A stretch of DNA of 64,000 bases from Murinocardiopsis flavida (GTDB taxonomy: Bacteria; Actinomycetota; Actinomycetes; Streptosporangiales; Streptosporangiaceae), in the NCBI RefSeq assembly GCF_003014485.1, contig NZ_PYGA01000001.1, positions 186,001 through 250,000 on the forward strand, written 5' to 3'. The notes under the pieces are model-generated. The model was not told the origin of the DNA. It did not search any database and saw nothing but the letters and a program-made list of their open reading frames with translations. Below are positions 11,910 through 20,146 of this stretch, piece by piece; within the stretch, counting starts at the first letter, position 1, and each line of letters begins with the position of its first letter. The translations under genes and the position numbers were made by a program.

Positions 11910-14342
11910 TCAGTCCTGGATGATCTCGCCGTACGCCTGGCGCAGGTCGCCGCTCGTGACCAGGGTGAGGTCGGCCGCCGTCGCGGTGTCGCCGAGCTCC
12001 TCGGAGACCCGCAGCGCGCGGAACGAGCACGCCTTCTCGAACAGCGAACGGGCGAAGCGCCCGTTGCCGAACTCGTCGATCCAGGACTCGCCGCACACGT
12101 AGTCGAAGATCTGGTGCAGGTCCTCGACCGCGTCGTCGTCGAAGGCGTCGCCGGTGCTCTCGGCGACCGCCTGGGCGATGGCGGTGAGCTCGGCGGCGGA
12201 GAAGCTGGGGAACGCCACCCGCATGTTGAACCGGGACGACAGCCCGGCGTTGCTCGCCAGGAACCGGTCCATCTCCGCCGGGTACCCCGCCAGCACGATG
12301 ACCAGGCGCGCCCGGTCGTCCTCCGCGCGTTTGAGCAGGGTCTGGATGGCCTCGGCGCCGAACGCGTCGCCGCCGCTGTACCCGGGGTTGGCGAGCGCGT
12401 ACGCCTCGTCGATAAACAGCACCCCGCCCAGCGCCTTGTCGACCAGCTTGTTGGTCTTCACCGCTGTGGCCCCCAGGTGCTCGCCGACGAGGTCGGCGCG
12501 CGACGCCTCGACCACCTCGGCGCGGCTGAGGAGTCCGAGCGCGCAGAAGACCCGGCCGAGGATGCGCGCGACGCTGGTCTTGCCGGTGCCGGGCGGCCCG
12601 ACGAACACGAAGTGCCGCATCGGGTCCTGCGGCCGCAGCCCCTGGTCCTCGCGCAACTTGGCGATCTGCAACTGCGCGGCGATGGAGCGCACCTGGCGCT
12701 TCACCGGGTCGAGGCCGATCATGGCGTCGAGTTCGGCGAGCGCCTCGTCCACGTCGGGCGGTTCGGCGAAGCCGGGCAGCCGCCGGGTGAGCTGGTCGTA
12801 GGCCGTGGCGACGTCGTCGGCCCGCACGGTCACCAGCTCGTGGCGGTCGGGGCGGGCCTCGCCCTCGCCCGCGGTGACCACCCGGACGTCGCGCGCCTCG
12901 GCCGACTTCTCCACCATCGAGCGGACGAAGCGGCCGTTGCCGAGGTCGTCGACGACGCCCCGCTGCGCCGCCTGGTCGAACCGCTGCCGGAGCGCCGGGC
13001 GCGCCTCGTCGTCCAGGAGGTCGCCGCGCTGCGCGAACCGCAGCTCGGCGATCCGCCCCAGTTCCTCGGGCGTGTAGCTGGGGAACGTGATCCGGGTGGC
13101 GAAGCGCGACGCGAGCCCGGGGTTCGAGGCGAGGAAGCGCTCCATCTCGGTCTCGTAGCCGGCCAGGATGACGACCAGCCGGTCGCGGTCGTCCTCGGCG
13201 CGCTTGAGCAGGGTCTGCACCGCCTCGTTGCCGAACCGGTCGGGCTGGCCGTCGGCGTCGTTGACGAGCGAGTACGCCTCGTCGATGAACAGCACCCCGC
13301 CCAGCGCGCTGTCGACCAGCTCGTTGGTCTTGATCGCCGTGGCGCCGAGGTACTCCCCCACCAGATCGGCCCGCTGCGCCTCGACCACCCGCGGTGTGGG
13401 CAGCAGCCCGAAGGAGTGGAAGATGCGGGCGAGCGTGCGCGCGACGCTGGTCTTGCCGGTGCCCGGCGGGCCGGAGAAGACCAGGTGCCGCAGCGGCTTG
13501 TCGACGGCGTACCCGGCGTCGGCGCGCAGCCGGGCCGCCTCGATGGACGCCGCGATGGCGCGGACCTGCTGCTTGACCGGGTCGAGGCCGATCATCGCCT
13601 CCAGTTCGGCGAGCGCCTCGTGGACCGGGATCGGCTCGGCGTCGTCGTCGCGGTCCGCCGCGCGGGGTGCGGCCCCGCCGGCGCCGGGGGCCGAGCGCTC
13701 CCGCTCAGCGGGCGCCGGCGGGGCCGCGGCGGCGCCGCCGGCCGGCTGCCTGCGCGGGGTGCTGGTGGGCGGCGGGAACCCGTCGCGCTTGAGCCGGTAG
13801 CCGGCGGCGGCCCGCCACAGCAGTGCGGCGCCCGCCGCGGCGACCGTGCACACGATGCCGGTGGCCGGGGGGACGGCGTCGGTGACCATGCTGCTCAGCG
13901 CGACGGCGAGGCCCACGATGAGGCCCACGACGAGCGCCAGCAGGGTGCTGTGCCACACCGGGAACATCCGGATGCGGCTCGCCCCGAGCGACACCAGCAG
14001 CGGCAGCACCAGCAGCACCAGCACCACCGACGAGCCGGCCAAGGGGATCTGGAACAGCGGGAAGGCGACGGCCAGCCAGAGGATGCACACCAGCGCGGTG
14101 GCGACGGCCTGGGAGGAGTGCATGAGGGCACTGAACAGGCCGAGCACCGCGACCGACACCGCGAGGGCGAGTGTGACGGAGTAGCCGAAGGCGAAAGCGA
14201 ACAGGCAGCACGCCGTGACGATCCCGAGCATCGCGACGAGGCGGGACCGGCCGGGGAAGCCGTGGTAGGCGCCGCGGAGGCGCTCCAGCGGCGATGCGGC
14301 CGCGGACCGCGCCGCAGGCCGGGGGTGCTCCTCGCGTCGCAC
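11910..14342 (-). CDS. Membrane-anchored tandem CbxX/CfqX-type AAA+ ATPase
   Basis: From GTG 14342 (GGGAGAGG seven bases upstream) the protein is 810 residues. Residues ~36-176 hold about six hydrophobic segments; a Pro/Ala-rich linker follows to ~235. Two AAA+ modules come next, each opening with ELxAMIGLDPVK and having Walker A GPPGTGKTS (291-299 and 582-590) and Walker B LFIDEAY (351-357 and 642-648). The modules resemble the CbxX/CfqX and EccA families, which remodel Rubisco or work with type VII secretion. No ESX or Rubisco genes are nearby, so the substrate is unknown. The duplication within one chain and the membrane anchor are unusual. It leads an apparent operon with the nucleotidyltransferase and phosphatase. 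Confidence 0.85.
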   Translation of the reverse strand: MRREEHPRPAARSAAASPLERLRGAYHGFPGRSRLVAMLGIVTACCLFAFAFGYSVTLALAVSVAVLGLFSALMHSSQAVATALVCILWLAVAFPLFQIPLAGSSVVLVLLVLPLLVSLGASRIRMFPVWHSTLLALVVGLIVGLAVALSSMVTDAVPPATGIVCTVAAAGAALLWRAAAGYRLKRDGFPPPTSTPRRQPAGGAAAAPPAPAERERSAPGAGGAAPRAADRDDDAEPIPVHEALAELEAMIGLDPVKQQVRAIAASIEAARLRADAGYAVDKPLRHLVFSGPPGTGKTSVARTLARIFHSFGLLPTPRVVEAQRADLVGEYLGATAIKTNELVDSALGGVLFIDEAYSLVNDADGQPDRFGNEAVQTLLKRAEDDRDRLVVILAGYETEMERFLASNPGLASRFATRITFPSYTPEELGRIAELRFAQRGDLLDDEARPALRQRFDQAAQRGVVDDLGNGRFVRSMVEKSAEARDVRVVTAGEGEARPDRHELVTVRADDVATAYDQLTRRLPGFAEPPDVDEALAELDAMIGLDPVKRQVRSIAAQLQIAKLREDQGLRPQDPMRHFVFVGPPGTGKTSVARILGRVFCALGLLSRAEVVEASRADLVGEHLGATAVKTNKLVDKALGGVLFIDEAYALANPGYSGGDAFGAEAIQTLLKRAEDDRARLVIVLAGYPAEMDRFLASNAGLSSRFNMRVAFPSFSAAELTAIAQAVAESTGDAFDDDAVEDLHQIFDYVCGESWIDEFGNGRFARSLFEKACSFRALRVSEELGDTATAADLTLVTSGDLRQAYGEIIQD

Positions 14343-14531
14343 CGCATCACCTCTCCCTCGGCCGGCCCGTGCGGGACCTCCGTGTCCGGCACCGACGCGC
14401 GACCGCGAGGGCGACCGGGGCGCCGCACGGCGCCATCGGCACTTTGTCGTCCCCCATACTGCCGCTTCCCCCGGGGGAATCATAAGGACGGGAGCGGCCG
14501 AGGGGTCCGGCGTGTCGCGCCGGGCGGCCGC

Positions 14532-16157: not shown

Positions 16158-16315
16158 GCGTCCCCGCGCCCGCCGGCACCGGTGATTCACGCACGGCTCT
16201 CACCCGTGTTTTAACCTGGCGCGCGTATACCGGAACGTGACTCCGGCGTTATCCGTTGTCTGAGTCGACCGGATTCCCCCCGGTACCGTCTGGCGATGGA
16301 CGAGGTAGGCACCAC

Positions 16316-16507
16316 GTGAACGAGTTCATGACAACGCTGCACCTGCGCATCCACGATGCCGTGCAATCACTGCGCCGCGCCCGCGCTAAGGGCGACCACG
16401 CCCAGATCGAGGCGCAGGCCGGTGAGATCGAGGATCTCGTCGAGATCGCGGCGCGGCACGGCGTCGACATCGCGTCCGGCTACCAGGGCATCACCCGGGC
16501 CGCCTGA
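16316..16507 (+). CDS. Small hypothetical helical protein, 63 aa
   Basis: This small soluble protein reads VNEFMTTLHLRIHDAVQSL then an acidic helix (QIEAQAGEIEDLVEIAARHG) and ends ITRAA. It looks like a helical hairpin. Similar short proteins occur in actinomycetes without known function. I chose GTG 16316, with GAGGTAGG upstream; ATG 16328 is possible. It is followed directly by a perfect hairpin terminator. Confidence 0.6.
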   Translation: MNEFMTTLHLRIHDAVQSLRRARAKGDHAQIEAQAGEIEDLVEIAARHGVDIASGYQGITRAA

Positions 16508-16524
16508 CCCCGCCGACACGACAA

Positions 16525-16555
16525 CGGGGCCGGTGCGCACTGCGCACCGGCCCCG
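16525..16555. terminator. Bidirectional hairpin between convergent genes
   Basis: A perfect inverted repeat, CGGGGCCGGTGCGC (16525-16538) with its complement 16542-16555, leaves a three-base loop. It sits 17 bases after the 63-aa gene stop and 21 bases from the stop of the opposing SPFH gene, so it can serve both directions. Confidence 0.8.
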
Positions 16556-16576
16556 TCCGTGTTCGGACCCTCGCGA

Positions 16577-18064
16577 TCAGCGCTTGCGGCGGCCCTTGCC
16601 CTGGCCCTGACCTTGCCCCTGGCCCTGCTGCTCGCCCATGTTCTGGCGCATCTGCTGCTCGAACTGCTGCTGCATGTCCTGCTGGCGCTGCGCGGCCTCG
16701 TCCACCGCGCCCTGCGCCTGGTCGAACAGCTTGCCGGCCGATTCAGGCAGCGCGCCCTTGATGGCGTCGGCGTCGCCGCCCTTACCGCGGCGCTTGCCGC
16801 CCTGCCGCCCCAGCTGCGGCAGCATCTGGGCGACGAGCAGGGTGGACAGCGCGGAGGTGTCGCCGGACGCGCCGTCGGTGCGCACCACGACCGGCTGCGG
16901 CGCCTGCTCGGCGAGCTTCGCCCCGACGTCGAGCCGGCGGCGCGCCAGCTCGTACTGGAGCACGGCCCGGTTGTCGCGGTAGGAGGTGGCGAGCCGCTGC
17001 TGCGCCTTCGCCTCGTTCTGCGCGGCCGTGAGGTCGGCCCGGCCGCGCGTCTCGATCTCGTAGCGCACCCGCTGCGCCTCGGTCACCTGCTCTTCGAGCA
17101 TCTGCGCGACGTCCTTGCGCGCCTTGTTCAGCGAAGCGTTGACCTCGACGATCTTGGCGTCGCGCGTCTTCTTGGAGCGCTCGATGTCCATCATCAGGGT
17201 GTCGATGCGGCGCTTGCGGGTCAGCTCCCACTCCTGCTCGTAGGCGACCAGTTCCTTGGCGACGCGCTCGCGGGTGGCGAGGTGCTGCTGGTACTGGTTC
17301 GGGAGCTGGACATCGGGGATGTTGCAGCCCATGATCCGGACGCCGTAGTCGCTGAGCTGCCGGTTGAGCAGGTTCTGCATGTCGGCGACGTCGGAGCCGC
17401 GGAGATCGTAGGCGCCTTCGGTGCGGACCTGGCGGCTGCGCTGGCGGATGGCGTCCTGCACCGCGTTGGACAGCACCAGGTCGAAGTTGCTGGCGCCGAT
17501 GGTGCGCACGAACTTCACCGCGTCCTCGATGCGGAACTTCAGGAAGAACTCGATCGACTTCAGCGGCACGTTCTCCTGGGTCGGGCAGGCCACGACGGGA
17601 GCGCTGTAGGGGATCTCGGTGGAGGTGTCGACCACGAAGTCCACCCGCGCCCACGGGTGCCACAGGTAGTGCCGCCCGGGGTCGAGGACGCTGACGACCT
17701 TGCCGAACTTCGACAGCACGCCGGTGGTGCCCTGCTCGATCTCCACGATCGATGAGCGCCACCACCACAGGCCGGCGACCAGCAGCGAGACCAGCGCCAG
17801 GATCAGCGTGGGCAGGGTCAGCCAGGTCAACGGAAACATCATGGTGTTGCCGAAGATCGCGAGCATCAGCGCGGTGGTCACCAGGTACAGCGCGAGCCAC
17901 ACGAGGGAGATCCACTTGAGGCCGCGGCCGTCGCGCGGGATGACCACCGGGACGAGTACGCCCTGGTCGCCGCCGCGCAGCAGCCGGGCGATGTCGTTCC
18001 AGCCGGCCAGGGACTCCTTGATGCTGGAGGAGCCCCTCACGAGGTTGGGTGCTGGCTGGTTCAT
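16577..18064 (-). CDS. SPFH/Band 7 membrane protein (second of a pair)
   Basis: A 495-residue protein. A short cytoplasmic N-terminus with VLVPVVIPRDGR comes before two membrane helices (about 50-71 and 78-102). An SPFH/Band 7 domain follows (from VEIEQGTTGVLSKFGKVV at ~108 to ~290), then a long coiled-coil helix (AKELVAYEQEWELTRKRRIDTL to EIETRGRADLTAAQNEAKAQ), and a Gln/Gly/Lys-rich tail (QGQGQGQGQGKGRRKR). SPFH proteins form large ring or cage assemblies that organise membrane regions and guard proteases. Its ATG overlaps the stop of the upstream SPFH gene (ATGA), implying coupled synthesis and probably joint assembly. The start at 18064 follows from that overlap. Confidence 0.88.
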   Translation of the reverse strand: MNQPAPNLVRGSSSIKESLAGWNDIARLLRGGDQGVLVPVVIPRDGRGLKWISLVWLALYLVTTALMLAIFGNTMMFPLTWLTLPTLILALVSLLVAGLWWWRSSIVEIEQGTTGVLSKFGKVVSVLDPGRHYLWHPWARVDFVVDTSTEIPYSAPVVACPTQENVPLKSIEFFLKFRIEDAVKFVRTIGASNFDLVLSNAVQDAIRQRSRQVRTEGAYDLRGSDVADMQNLLNRQLSDYGVRIMGCNIPDVQLPNQYQQHLATRERVAKELVAYEQEWELTRKRRIDTLMMDIERSKKTRDAKIVEVNASLNKARKDVAQMLEEQVTEAQRVRYEIETRGRADLTAAQNEAKAQQRLATSYRDNRAVLQYELARRRLDVGAKLAEQAPQPVVVRTDGASGDTSALSTLLVAQMLPQLGRQGGKRRGKGGDADAIKGALPESAGKLFDQAQGAVDEAAQRQQDMQQQFEQQMRQNMGEQQGQGQGQGQGKGRRKR

Positions 18065-19899
18065 CGCCGGCCTCCCTGGTACGGGTCGTCGGAGCCGTCG
18101 GACCACGGCGCGGGCGGGGCGGGTGGGGCAGGCGGCGGCGGGCCGCCCGGTGCGGGCGGTGCCCCGGGTTCGAGGCCGTACCCGAGGTCGGGCGCAGGCC
18201 GCGGCGGCGTGCCGGGGTCGTCCTGCCAGAGCCGCGGCGCCGCCGGGGCTTCGGGAGCGGGGGTCGGCTCGGGCCGGGCCGCCGCGGGCGCCGCCTCGTT
18301 CTGGAGGCGCTGCTCAATGGCGTTGTCGGTGACCGACCGGCGGATCTCCTCGACGCGGTCGGCGCCGGGGACGTCGGCGCCGGCGTCCGGGACCGGCGTC
18401 GCGACCGTCTCGTCGTCCTTGTCGAGCAGTTCGCCGATCTCGGCCTCGCGGGAGGCGATGCGCTCGGCGATGGCGCCGAGGCGGTTGCGGATGGCGTCCA
18501 TGTCGGAGTCGGAGAACAGCTCGGCGTCGGCCCCGCCGATGATCTCCTGGGCGATCCGCAGGTAGTTGATGCTGTCGGAGTCGCCGTCGCCGATGTGCAG
18601 GACCTGCGGCAGGCTGTCGGCGACCGACTCCAGCTTGGCGAGCAGGTCCTGCTGGAAGCGGAAGTTCAGGATCTCGGGCGCCTCGGCCGCGCTCACCGCG
18701 CGGATGTCGAGGGCCTGCGCCTCCAGCAGCGCGGCGTTGGCGTTGGCCGAGCTCTCCGCCTCGACGAAGCGCTGGCGGGCGAGCGCGCGGGCGCGGTTGG
18801 TCTCGCGCTCCAGCGCGGTGTCCATCTGCGCCTGGTACGTGGCGATGTCGGCCTGGATGGCGGACAGGGTCTCGTTCAGCGAGGCGAGTTCCTTGTTCAG
18901 GTCGCCCTCGTTCTGCTCCTTGCGCAGCTGGAGTTCGTACTCGTAGGTGTACGCCTCCTTGGCCACGCGCATCATCTCGGGCGCGGCGAGGTCCATGCGG
19001 TATTCCTGGCTGGACGGCTCGGCGTGCGTGATGTTGGCGTTGGTGAGCCGCACCGCGGGGAGGAACTGCTGGTTCAGCTGTTCGAGGAGCCGGGCGGTGT
19101 TCTCGCCCACCAGGTCGTAGATGTCGGACGCCTGCTGCTCGTAGATCAGGCTGCGGGTGGTCTCGCTGATCGCGTTGTTCAGCTTGTCCTGGAACCCCTG
19201 GACGGCGCCGAGGACGAAGATGAACGACTGCGGGTCCTCGATGCGGAACTGGAGGAACAGGTCGACCGACGCCTTGACCCCGCTCTTGGTCGGCGCCTCG
19301 CGGATGGGCGCGTTGAACGGGAACTGCCGCTGGGTGTTGACGATGTAGGAGACCCGCTTCCACGGGTTGAACATCGTGATGCGGCCCGGGCCGACGATCT
19401 GCTCCAGCTTGCCGAACTTGGTGATCAGCGCGGCGCAGCCGTCGGGGACCATGACCATGCCCTGGCGCCACCACATGAACGCGGCGACGAGGACGGTCAC
19501 GATCCAGTAGTGCGGGCCGAAGAGGATGAAGGACAGCTGGGAGAACCCGGTCAGCACCGAGCCGACCGCGCCGATGATGACCAGCAGCACCACCGGGATC
19601 AGCGCGCCGAGCGTGCGCCCGCGCGGGAGCACCATCGGGCAGATCACGTGGACCGAGCCGCCCTTGTCGGTCTCCAGTGTGCTCCGGTTGAGGATCTCGC
19701 CGGCGTTGTTCAGGGAGGTGGTCTGCTGCTCGATGCGGGTACCGACCGAAGCGCCCTGTTCGCGTGCCGCGAGGAAGTCGCCGGGGTCGAGCCCGAACTC
19801 GTCGGCCGCCTTGCCGACCGTGTCAGAGACCACCTGGCGGGGATCGCCCCCTTGCGCGATCGCCCCGGCGGCCCCGCGCACCGTCTGCGCGAAGGACAT
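18061..19899 (-). CDS. SPFH/Band 7 membrane protein (first of a pair)
   Basis: A 612-residue protein. Residues 1-95 are a cytoplasmic region ending in VHVICPMVLPRGR, which matches VPVVIPRDGR of its partner. Two membrane segments follow (~96-115 and ~122-145), then the SPFH domain (GMVMVPDGCAALITKFGKLEQIVGPGRITMF onward to ~320), coiled coil (LRKEQNEGDLNKELASLNE to ARQRFVEAESSANANAALLE), an acidic helical region (DSDMDAIRNRLGAIAERI), and a long Pro-rich disordered tail (PPAPGGPPPPAPPAPPAPW). The shared layout marks it as a paralogue of the next gene. The start ATG 19899 has GGGGG nine bases upstream; GTG 19905 is also possible. The role is unknown; HflKC/flotillin-like membrane scaffolding is the closest family precedent. 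Confidence 0.88.
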   Translation of the reverse strand: MSFAQTVRGAAGAIAQGGDPRQVVSDTVGKAADEFGLDPGDFLAAREQGASVGTRIEQQTTSLNNAGEILNRSTLETDKGGSVHVICPMVLPRGRTLGALIPVVLLVIIGAVGSVLTGFSQLSFILFGPHYWIVTVLVAAFMWWRQGMVMVPDGCAALITKFGKLEQIVGPGRITMFNPWKRVSYIVNTQRQFPFNAPIREAPTKSGVKASVDLFLQFRIEDPQSFIFVLGAVQGFQDKLNNAISETTRSLIYEQQASDIYDLVGENTARLLEQLNQQFLPAVRLTNANITHAEPSSQEYRMDLAAPEMMRVAKEAYTYEYELQLRKEQNEGDLNKELASLNETLSAIQADIATYQAQMDTALERETNRARALARQRFVEAESSANANAALLEAQALDIRAVSAAEAPEILNFRFQQDLLAKLESVADSLPQVLHIGDGDSDSINYLRIAQEIIGGADAELFSDSDMDAIRNRLGAIAERIASREAEIGELLDKDDETVATPVPDAGADVPGADRVEEIRRSVTDNAIEQRLQNEAAPAAARPEPTPAPEAPAAPRLWQDDPGTPPRPAPDLGYGLEPGAPPAPGGPPPPAPPAPPAPWSDGSDDPYQGGRR

Positions 19900-20146
19900 A
19901 GGCACAAACCCCCTGCTTCATCTGGTCGTCGAATGTGCATGATCCGACGGGAGACACACCGGTTCGGTTCCGCTGCCGGTTCGGAAGGCTGCAATCCTGT
20001 CACGCGATGGGACACATGCGGGAATTCGATTCATAACCATCCGCTATCCCCCGACCTGGGATTCGGTCATTTCGCCGGGACCCGACCATCCGACACGGGA
20101 CCGAAATCCGGTGCGCGCCGCAGGTCCGGGCCGTTAGGGTCCGGCC

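What the first reader, a model, noticed from the sequence alone, without database searches (positions are those of the whole stretch)
16577..19899. Coupled pair of divergent SPFH proteins
Two paralogous SPFH membrane proteins overlap by ATGA. Each has a matching pre-membrane motif (VPVVIPRDGR and ICPMVLPRGR), two membrane helices, a coiled coil, and a different disordered tail (Pro-rich versus Gln/Gly/Lys-rich). This resembles HflK/HflC in logic: a mixed ring with two kinds of tail, perhaps recruiting different partners. No FtsH gene is next to it.
Basis: partly seen in the sequence, partly recalled or inferred. Interest (0 to 1): 0.6.

Follow-up and report, generated by a model that had tools for sequence, protein, structure and literature searches.

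The report
Obligate SPFH pair, envelope-stress promoter
Two neighbouring genes of an actinobacterium encode sister membrane-scaffold proteins that sit side by side wherever they were found and, in many relatives, follow a stress-type promoter, so they probably build one mixed cage under the cell membrane that helps the cell survive envelope damage.

Summary
Gene A (window 19899-18061, minus) and gene B (18064-16577, minus) overlap by ATGA. Both are SPFH/Band_7 proteins with a shared P-[VM]-V-[IL]-P-[RK] motif, a predicted membrane hairpin and a long helix; they are sister clades. Of 203 loci with either gene, nearly all found through B, 202 hold both; the exception is cut by a contig end. In 163 of 176 distinct pairs they lie within 11 bases.

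The HflK/HflC analogy is only partly right: both score far below its cut-offs, and charges predict cytoplasmic, not periplasmic, SPFH domains. The two tails are not conserved; SPFH domain and long helix are.

New: in the Nocardiopsaceae-type group gene A has an ECF-sigma-type promoter (GGAAC-N15-17-CGT in 41 of 43 non-redundant upstreams). A strict form also precedes a flotillin-like SPFH gene (3 of 7 genomes) and Spo0M, AIM24, TerC, scramblase, lipoprotein and other genes. In 28 of 28 Actinomadura-like loci spo0M directly follows the pair, yet the window's genome lacks Spo0M. This resembles the Bacillus sigma-W regulon (FloA, FloT, YdjI). Best reading: a mixed, cytoplasm-facing SPFH cage for membrane-stress protection. 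The mixed ring is untested.

The parts
18061..19899 (-). gene A, SPFH/Band_7 membrane protein, 612 aa from ATG (GTG at 19905 possible)
   Evidence: relatives L043 and L233 also start MSFAQ
16577..18064 (-). gene B, SPFH/Band_7 membrane protein, 495 aa
18061..18064 (-). ATGA overlap of the stop of A and the start of B
   Evidence: sequence; same spacing of -4 in 61 of 176 distinct pairs
19943..19971 (-). ECF-sigma-type promoter candidate GGAACC-N16-CGTCGGA, 43 bases before the ATG of A
   Evidence: 1 match, 0 in 100 shuffles; conservation
19615..19644 (-). A pre-membrane motif ICPMVLPRGR
17924..17953 (-). B pre-membrane motif VPVVIPRDGR
19459..19611 (-). A membrane hairpin (helices 97-117 and 129-147, ATG numbering)
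   Evidence: prediction
17753..17917 (-). B membrane hairpin (helices 50-72 and 78-104)
   Evidence: prediction
18940..19452 (-). A SPFH domain (residues 152-322 of P0002)
   Evidence: fold
17249..17743 (-). B SPFH domain (residues 108-272)
   Evidence: fold
18613..19008 (-). A long helical region after the SPFH domain (298-429, ATG numbering, short breaks)
   Evidence: conservation
16904..17299 (-). B long helix after the SPFH domain (256-387)
   Evidence: conservation
18064..18294 (-). A proline-rich tail, low confidence, not conserved
16580..16813 (-). B Q/G/K-rich tail, partly predicted helical, not conserved outside close relatives
16526..16554 (-). perfect 14-bp inverted repeat after B, likely transcript end (no T run)
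   Evidence: sequence; folding of 16515-16565, z-score -7.13

Best explanation
A and B are the two subunits of one SPFH assembly. A single ancient duplication of an SPFH gene gave A and B, and the two have since travelled together. Each is anchored by a membrane hairpin, with its SPFH domain and long helix on the cytoplasmic side (predicted). Made in step through coupled or touching stop and start codons, they most likely alternate in one ring or dome on the inner face of the membrane, as prohibitin 1/2, erlin 1/2 and flotillin 1/2 do (inferred). In Nocardiopsaceae-type bacteria the operon carries an ECF-sigma-type promoter that it shares with other membrane-protection genes. The cage therefore probably corrals lipids or damaged membrane proteins during envelope stress, much as FloA, FloT and YdjI serve the sigma-W response of Bacillus subtilis. 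In Actinomadura-like bacteria Spo0M (an arrestin-like protein; fold recalled) is encoded in the same apparent operon and is the best candidate partner there, though not an obligatory one. Shown: pair, linkage, sister relationship, SPFH sequence match, conserved promoter pattern, spo0M adjacency. Inferred or predicted: mixed ring, cytoplasmic side, use of the promoter, stress role.
For: Both genes at 202 of 203 loci; 163 of 176 distinct pairs within 11 bases, 61 with the 4-base overlap. Forty of 40 genomes with B in a sample of 394 of the class, and 18 of 18 loci in a sample of 296 of the phylum, have the A-type match beside it. A and B are separate clades (99/99 and 94/93) and sisters (94/93) on a tree with 22 other SPFH rows. 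Identity to the window's residue is 66-92% per 20-residue block through the SPFH domain and long helix. K/R before the first helix and after the second, almost none in the loop, over 176 pairs: hairpin with both ends inside. The 50 Foldseek rows listed for each model are SPFH proteins (HflK/C, erlin, stomatin, prohibitin, flotillin, QmcA) or, for A, also vault protein. Promoter: 50 of 102 non-redundant upstreams, 41 of 43 in the Nocardiopsaceae-type group, against a shuffle mean of 1.6 (most 5) and 13 of 844 other genes. Strict pattern: 8 sites in the genome and 123 in 15 relatives, reversed-pattern control 0 and 2, before flotillin-like, Spo0M, AIM24, TerC, scramblase, SSI, DUF4178 and EPSP-synthase (MurA-type) genes among others. 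spo0M downstream of B in 28 of 28 Actinomadura-like loci and the GGAAC-N15-17-CGT pattern in 19 of 30 Spo0M upstreams. PMC8581546 passages: FloA, FloT and YdjI under sigma-W.
Against: No direct test of A-B binding was possible. The promoter is absent from the other-class family (0 of 13) and nearly so from Actinomadura-like loci (1 of 19), so the stress link is shown by sequence for only part of the family; the antisense control gave 21 of 102, far above shuffles. The window's own genome has no Spo0M match. The flotillin-like gene has the site in only 3 of 7 genomes that have it, and the strict site is missing before A in 4 of 15 relatives. Of 118 sites inspected, 33 have no convincing gene within 300 bases, so some sites are probably chance, and the 20 genes given to Pfam were picked by eye. 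Whether A occurs without B was checked only in 16 genomes, and there in part. The tree tool warns that long branches meet, so the distance to HflK/C and flotillins is unsure.
Confidence: 0.6

Rival explanations
1. A and B each form their own homo-oligomeric ring and are only co-expressed, perhaps acting one after the other or in separate membrane patches.
For: The two differ by about 70% of residues, and stomatin and QmcA, which I recall as homo-oligomers, are among the fold matches.
Against: Not seen apart at 202 of 203 loci, with touching or overlapping genes; both cores strongly conserved; the two-gene bacterial case HflK/HflC is a mixed assembly (structure titles).
Confidence: 0.22
2. An HflK/HflC-like regulator of the FtsH protease.
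For: Two-gene SPFH operon; the weak best matches of A among NCBIfam and solved structures are HflK.
Against: 21.9 and 23.2 bits against a HflK cut-off of 159.4; predicted cytoplasmic SPFH domains against periplasmic ones in HflK/C (PMC2636767 section 11); FtsH on another contig; HflK and HflC outside A+B on the tree, on long branches of unsure place.
Confidence: 0.08
3. A general membrane-order scaffold of flotillin type without a special tie to stress; the promoter pattern is a local habit of Nocardiopsaceae.
For: No neighbour found in more than 16 of 35 representative loci; no promoter match in 13 other-class upstreams.
Against: The promoter pattern is in 41 of 43 Nocardiopsaceae-type upstreams and also in 5 of 12 of the Janibacter/Ornithinimicrobium group; spo0M follows the pair in another lineage, and Spo0M genes elsewhere have the same type of upstream pattern.
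Confidence: 0.25

Closest known systems
HflK/HflC (SPFH3)
   Same: two paralogous SPFH genes in one operon; same fold
   Different: scores far below family cut-offs; predicted hairpin and cytoplasmic SPFH domains; not beside FtsH
FloA, FloT and YdjI of Bacillus subtilis (sigma-W regulated SPFH proteins)
   Same: SPFH proteins tied to an ECF-type promoter with other membrane-stress genes; FloA/FloT also anchored by a helix or hairpin (PMC8581546 passages)
   Different: not a pair of sister genes (recalled for FloA/FloT; YdjI lies in the pspA operon); no NfeD or PspA found among the six flanking genes scanned here
Eukaryotic mixed SPFH cages: prohibitin 1/2, erlin 1/2, flotillin 1/2
   Same: two related subunits; fold matches
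   Different: fold matches at roughly 9-20% identity only; function unknown here
SPFH11a/SPFH11b of Hinderhofer et al. 2009 (PMC2636767)
   Same: a small subfamily pair always adjacent in one operon (passages)
   Different: SPFH11b was said to lack the coiled coil, whereas A and B both have the long helix; the member list could not be opened, so identity is open
Spo0M
   Same: directly follows the pair in Actinomadura-like bacteria
   Different: separate family; no match in the window's own genome

Membership tests
SPFH / Band_7 superfamily | Band_7 domain above Pfam cut-off | tested here: met
   81.2 and 55.6 bits, cut-off 23.6
SPFH / Band_7 superfamily | SPFH fold followed by a long helix | tested here: met
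   predicted models:
HflK/HflC | scores above HflK or HflC equivalog cut-offs | tested here: not met
   B 21.9, A 23.2 against HflK 159.4; A 12.5 against HflC 134.4
HflK/HflC | SPFH domain on the periplasmic side | tested here: not met
   prediction only: charge pattern over 176 pairs puts both ends of the hairpin inside; periplasmic HflK/C from PMC2636767
HflK/HflC | two paralogous genes in one operon | tested here: met
HflK/HflC | complex with FtsH | not testable with these tools
   FtsH gene is on another contig
p-stomatin, p-flotillin and SPFH5 (NfeD-linked) | NfeD gene in the same operon | tested here: not met
   no NfeD among the six flanking proteins scanned in the window; an inverted repeat closes the operon after B; definition from PMC2636767 passages
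SPFH11a/b | two subgroups always adjacent in one operon | tested here: met
   definition
SPFH11a/b | subgroup b without coiled coil | tested here: inconclusive
   both A and B have a long helix, but helix prediction is not the coiled-coil method of that paper
SPFH11a/b | sequence kinship to listed members | not testable with these tools
ECF-sigma stress regulon member (sigma-W-like) | ECF-type promoter pattern shared with membrane-protection genes | tested here: met
   in the Nocardiopsaceae-type group; not in all lineages
ECF-sigma stress regulon member (sigma-W-like) | induction by envelope stress | not testable with these tools
   no expression data

The most novel reading that the evidence does not exclude
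A bacterial SPFH cage built of two obligate, alternating subunits and facing the cytoplasm, a counterpart of the flotillin 1/2 or erlin 1/2 cages, which is put up on demand by an ECF sigma factor and, in some lineages, works with Spo0M as a membrane-repair platform in actinobacteria.
Probability: 0.35. Interest if true: 0.72.

Novelty: new variant of a known kind. Interest (0 to 1): 0.5.

Why it matters
Why many SPFH cages are built from two paralogues is, as far as I know, unclear, and the bacterial example usually cited, HflK/HflC, faces the periplasm. A compact bacterial pair with predicted cytoplasmic orientation would be a tractable model for mixed flotillin- and erlin-like cages. The promoter evidence also suggests that actinobacteria of this group have a membrane-stress regulon whose content parallels Bacillus sigma-W (SPFH proteins per PMC8581546; Spo0M and TerC as sigma-W genes are recalled), which gives a concrete place to look for its sigma factor and inducers.

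Tried and rejected
HflK/HflC membership: rejected on scores and predicted topology. Anti-phage defence: no PADLOC match for A or B and no match for B in phage records; PHROGs gave phrog_200 at 1.9e-13 for B and 0.0064 for A, an odd link I did not follow. Functional neighbours in the window: RNase HII, the EccA/SpoVK-like AAA protein, NrdJ and others are shared with 16 of 35 representative loci, and the other lineages printed have other neighbours, so no role was read from them. Tails as partner-specific recruiters: rejected as a general rule. Sigma-70-type promoter and T-run terminator scan: one match each, neither on the strand or at the place that would fit. Identity of the ECF sigma factor: I noticed no sigma gene among the genes printed after the sites (by eye), and a paper search for the promoter words gave two papers on other organisms (listing). 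Co-variation between A and B was considered but not run: too few variable columns and no coordinates to judge it. Literature: searches listed no title or abstract on an actinobacterial SPFH pair; the library lacks most subscription papers, and SPFH11 may be the same thing. Of PMC2636767 I saw passages and section 11; of PMC8581546, PMC11237479 and PMC9040799, passages.

Rows dropped before counts: 10 of 202 loci (L005, L006, L018, L088, L114, L125, L127, L129, L132, L219), cut or broken in frame, were left out of the 176 distinct pairs. Loci from named and unnamed collections overlap in species and include the window's own locus more than once; identical pairs were removed, near-identical ones were not, except, where 130 upstreams were reduced to 102. 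Lineage labels (Nocardiopsaceae-type, Actinomadura-like and so on) are mine; every locus not assigned elsewhere was counted as Nocardiopsaceae. In the first count L116 seemed to lack A; translation showed A in another frame. Of 131 strict promoter sites in 16 genomes 118 were inspected; 10 pair sites, one at a contig edge and two others were not fetched. Of 85 genes after those sites I gave 20 to Pfam, chosen by eye, which favours recognisable families; two had no match and two matched just below cut-off. 'Flotillin-like' in the count of 3 of 7 rests for four genomes on frame length and the weak Band_7 match alone.
Full report
What is there. On the minus strand lie gene A (19899-18061, 612 aa from ATG) and gene B (18064-16577, 495 aa), overlapping by ATGA. 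Both are Band_7 proteins above Pfam's cut-off. A profile comparison aligns them from the pre-membrane motif through the membrane hairpin, SPFH domain and long helix (B 30-415, A 79-453, E 1e-34, 30% identity). The genome has seven Band_7 matches, of which these are two.

Linkage. A scan of named genomes gave 76 loci, among them Nocardiopsis, Thermobifida, Streptomonospora, Janibacter, Ornithinimicrobium and some Streptomyces. Pooled, 202 of 203 loci hold both; L110 is cut at a contig end. In 176 distinct pairs the spacing is -4 in 61, -1 in 20 and 0 in 63; 163 lie within 11 bases. Limits: nearly all loci were found through B, species recur, and searches with A failed three times. As a check, 24 of the 56 other Band_7 matches in 15 relatives (those in or near A's score range, flotillin-like ones left out) and the five others of the own genome were compared with A: none exceeds 48.1 bits.

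Descent. On a tree of SPFH domains with 20 other SPFH rows and E. coli HflK/HflC, A (16 rows) and B (16 rows) are separate clades (99/99 and 94/93) and sisters (94/93). HflK and HflC fall outside on long branches; the tool warns that such joins may be false. So one duplication most likely preceded the spread. Distribution is patchy: in the order sample 70 of 200 genomes have no match to B at all and others only weak ones.

Anatomy. Predicted models (mean pLDDT 75 and 74) show a membrane hairpin, an SPFH domain and a long helical region. The 50 Foldseek rows listed for each are SPFH proteins (HflK/C, erlin, stomatin, prohibitin, flotillin, QmcA) or, for A, also major vault protein; the second-look aligner gave Z of about 12 to 15 for the top rows, several over one domain only, with unrelated ribosomal proteins and FliL at Z 7.5 to 9.5. 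Positive charges stand before the first and after the second membrane helix and almost none lie in the loop, over 176 pairs. By the positive-inside rule both ends, hence the SPFH domains, are cytoplasmic. Identity to the window's residue is 66-92% per 20-residue block through the SPFH domain and long helix, and 3-35% in the tails. B's glutamine-rich tail is seen in the Nocardiopsaceae-type and, partly, the Janibacter group; elsewhere it is short or different.

Promoter. Upstream of A is GGAACC-N16-CGTCGGA (19971-19943; 0 matches in 100 shuffles of the window). GGAAC-N15-17-CGT occurs in 50 of 102 non-redundant upstreams: 41 of 43 Nocardiopsaceae-type, 5 of 12 Janibacter/Ornithinimicrobium group, 1 of 4 halophilic Streptomyces, 2 of 10 other Streptomyces, 1 of 19 Actinomadura-like, 0 of 13 other-class, 0 of 1 remaining. 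Controls: shuffles mean 1.6, largest 5; other genes of the same loci 13 of 844; antisense 21 of 102, an excess I cannot explain. That this shape is typical of ECF sigma factors is recalled, not looked up.

Shared regulon. The strict pattern was drawn from the pair's own sites, so its match at the pair is partly circular; its other matches are not. It has 8 sites in the 7.4-Mb genome and 123 in 15 relatives, against 0 and 2 for the reversed pattern. It stands before A in 11 of these 15 relatives and before a flotillin-like SPFH gene in 3 of the 7 genomes that have one, the window's own included. Of 118 sites inspected, 85 have a gene-like frame within 300 bases. Of 20 of these genes, picked by eye and given to Pfam, 18 matched a family, two of them just below cut-off: SSI, DUF4870, YccF, Band_7, Spo0M, AIM24, Scramblase, TerC, DUF1232, bPH_2, DUF4126, DUF4178, zinc ribbon, protein kinase, EPSP synthase (MurA-type by eye), CDP-alcohol transferase, LppX and Rv1476. 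Many of these are membrane or envelope proteins. PMC11237479 (passages) places band-7 and DUF4178 proteins with PspA membrane-stress systems; PMC8581546 (passages) states that FloA, FloT and YdjI are sigma-W regulated.

Spo0M. In 28 of 28 Actinomadura-like loci spo0M directly follows B; in 19 other loci of the same call it does not, and among 113 loci, most with wider context, it was found in 5, all Actinomadura-like and counted among the 28. Spo0M genes have GGAAC-N15-17-CGT within 260 bases upstream in 19 of 30 cases, 16 of 25 if those beside the pair are left out; the comparison of 13 of 844 was made over 200 bases. Against an obligatory partnership: two of 21 genomes, among them the window's own, have no Spo0M match.

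Verdict. The pair is real, old and found together at 202 of 203 loci. Mixed assembly, orientation and stress function need the bench.

Noticed in passing
L231, L239, L241, L258, L263, L274, L275, L285, L287, L299, L306, L320, L340: A gene beginning MAM[TSA]AGF (L231 is a protein kinase by Pfam; the others by eye) has the strict ECF-type site 110-270 bases upstream in 13 of 15 relatives examined; it may be a core member of the same regulon.
   Followed up: partly
G000:C23:83746-83774 (locus L229): One of eight strict promoter sites of the window's genome precedes a small membrane-protein gene followed by a flotillin-like SPFH gene.
   Followed up: partly
L240, L247, L254, L332: Lipoprotein-like genes start a few bases after the ECF-type site in four genomes; L240 has a subtilisin-inhibitor-like domain, the others resemble it by eye.
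   Followed up: partly
window 11910-14483 (-): A protein with two AAA domains, matching EccA, SpoVK and CbbX models; found near the pair in 16 of 35 representative loci.
   Followed up: no
window 16256-16507 (+): Small ORF of 63-83 aa convergent with B, with relatives in 6 of 35 representative loci; its family was not searched.
   Followed up: no
upstream of gene A, 102 non-redundant loci: The antisense control for the promoter pattern gave 21 of 102, well above shuffles; a GTTCC seen downstream of the promoter in some loci may be part of it.
   Followed up: no
G362: L168 and L174: One draft genome of the other-class family carries the pair on two contigs.
   Followed up: no
L088, L018, L219: A in Nocardiopsis halophila (L088; L018 and L219 look like the same genome) ends early with a changed tail, probably a frame break or an assembly error.
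   Followed up: no
window 16577-18064 (-): B matches the phage family phrog_200 (E 1.9e-13) over residues 53-394, although no phage record matched B at 1e-5.
   Followed up: no
NZ_LT559118.1 (L182): An 11.85-Mb record in the plasmid collection is labelled plasmid but has the size of a chromosome.
   Followed up: no
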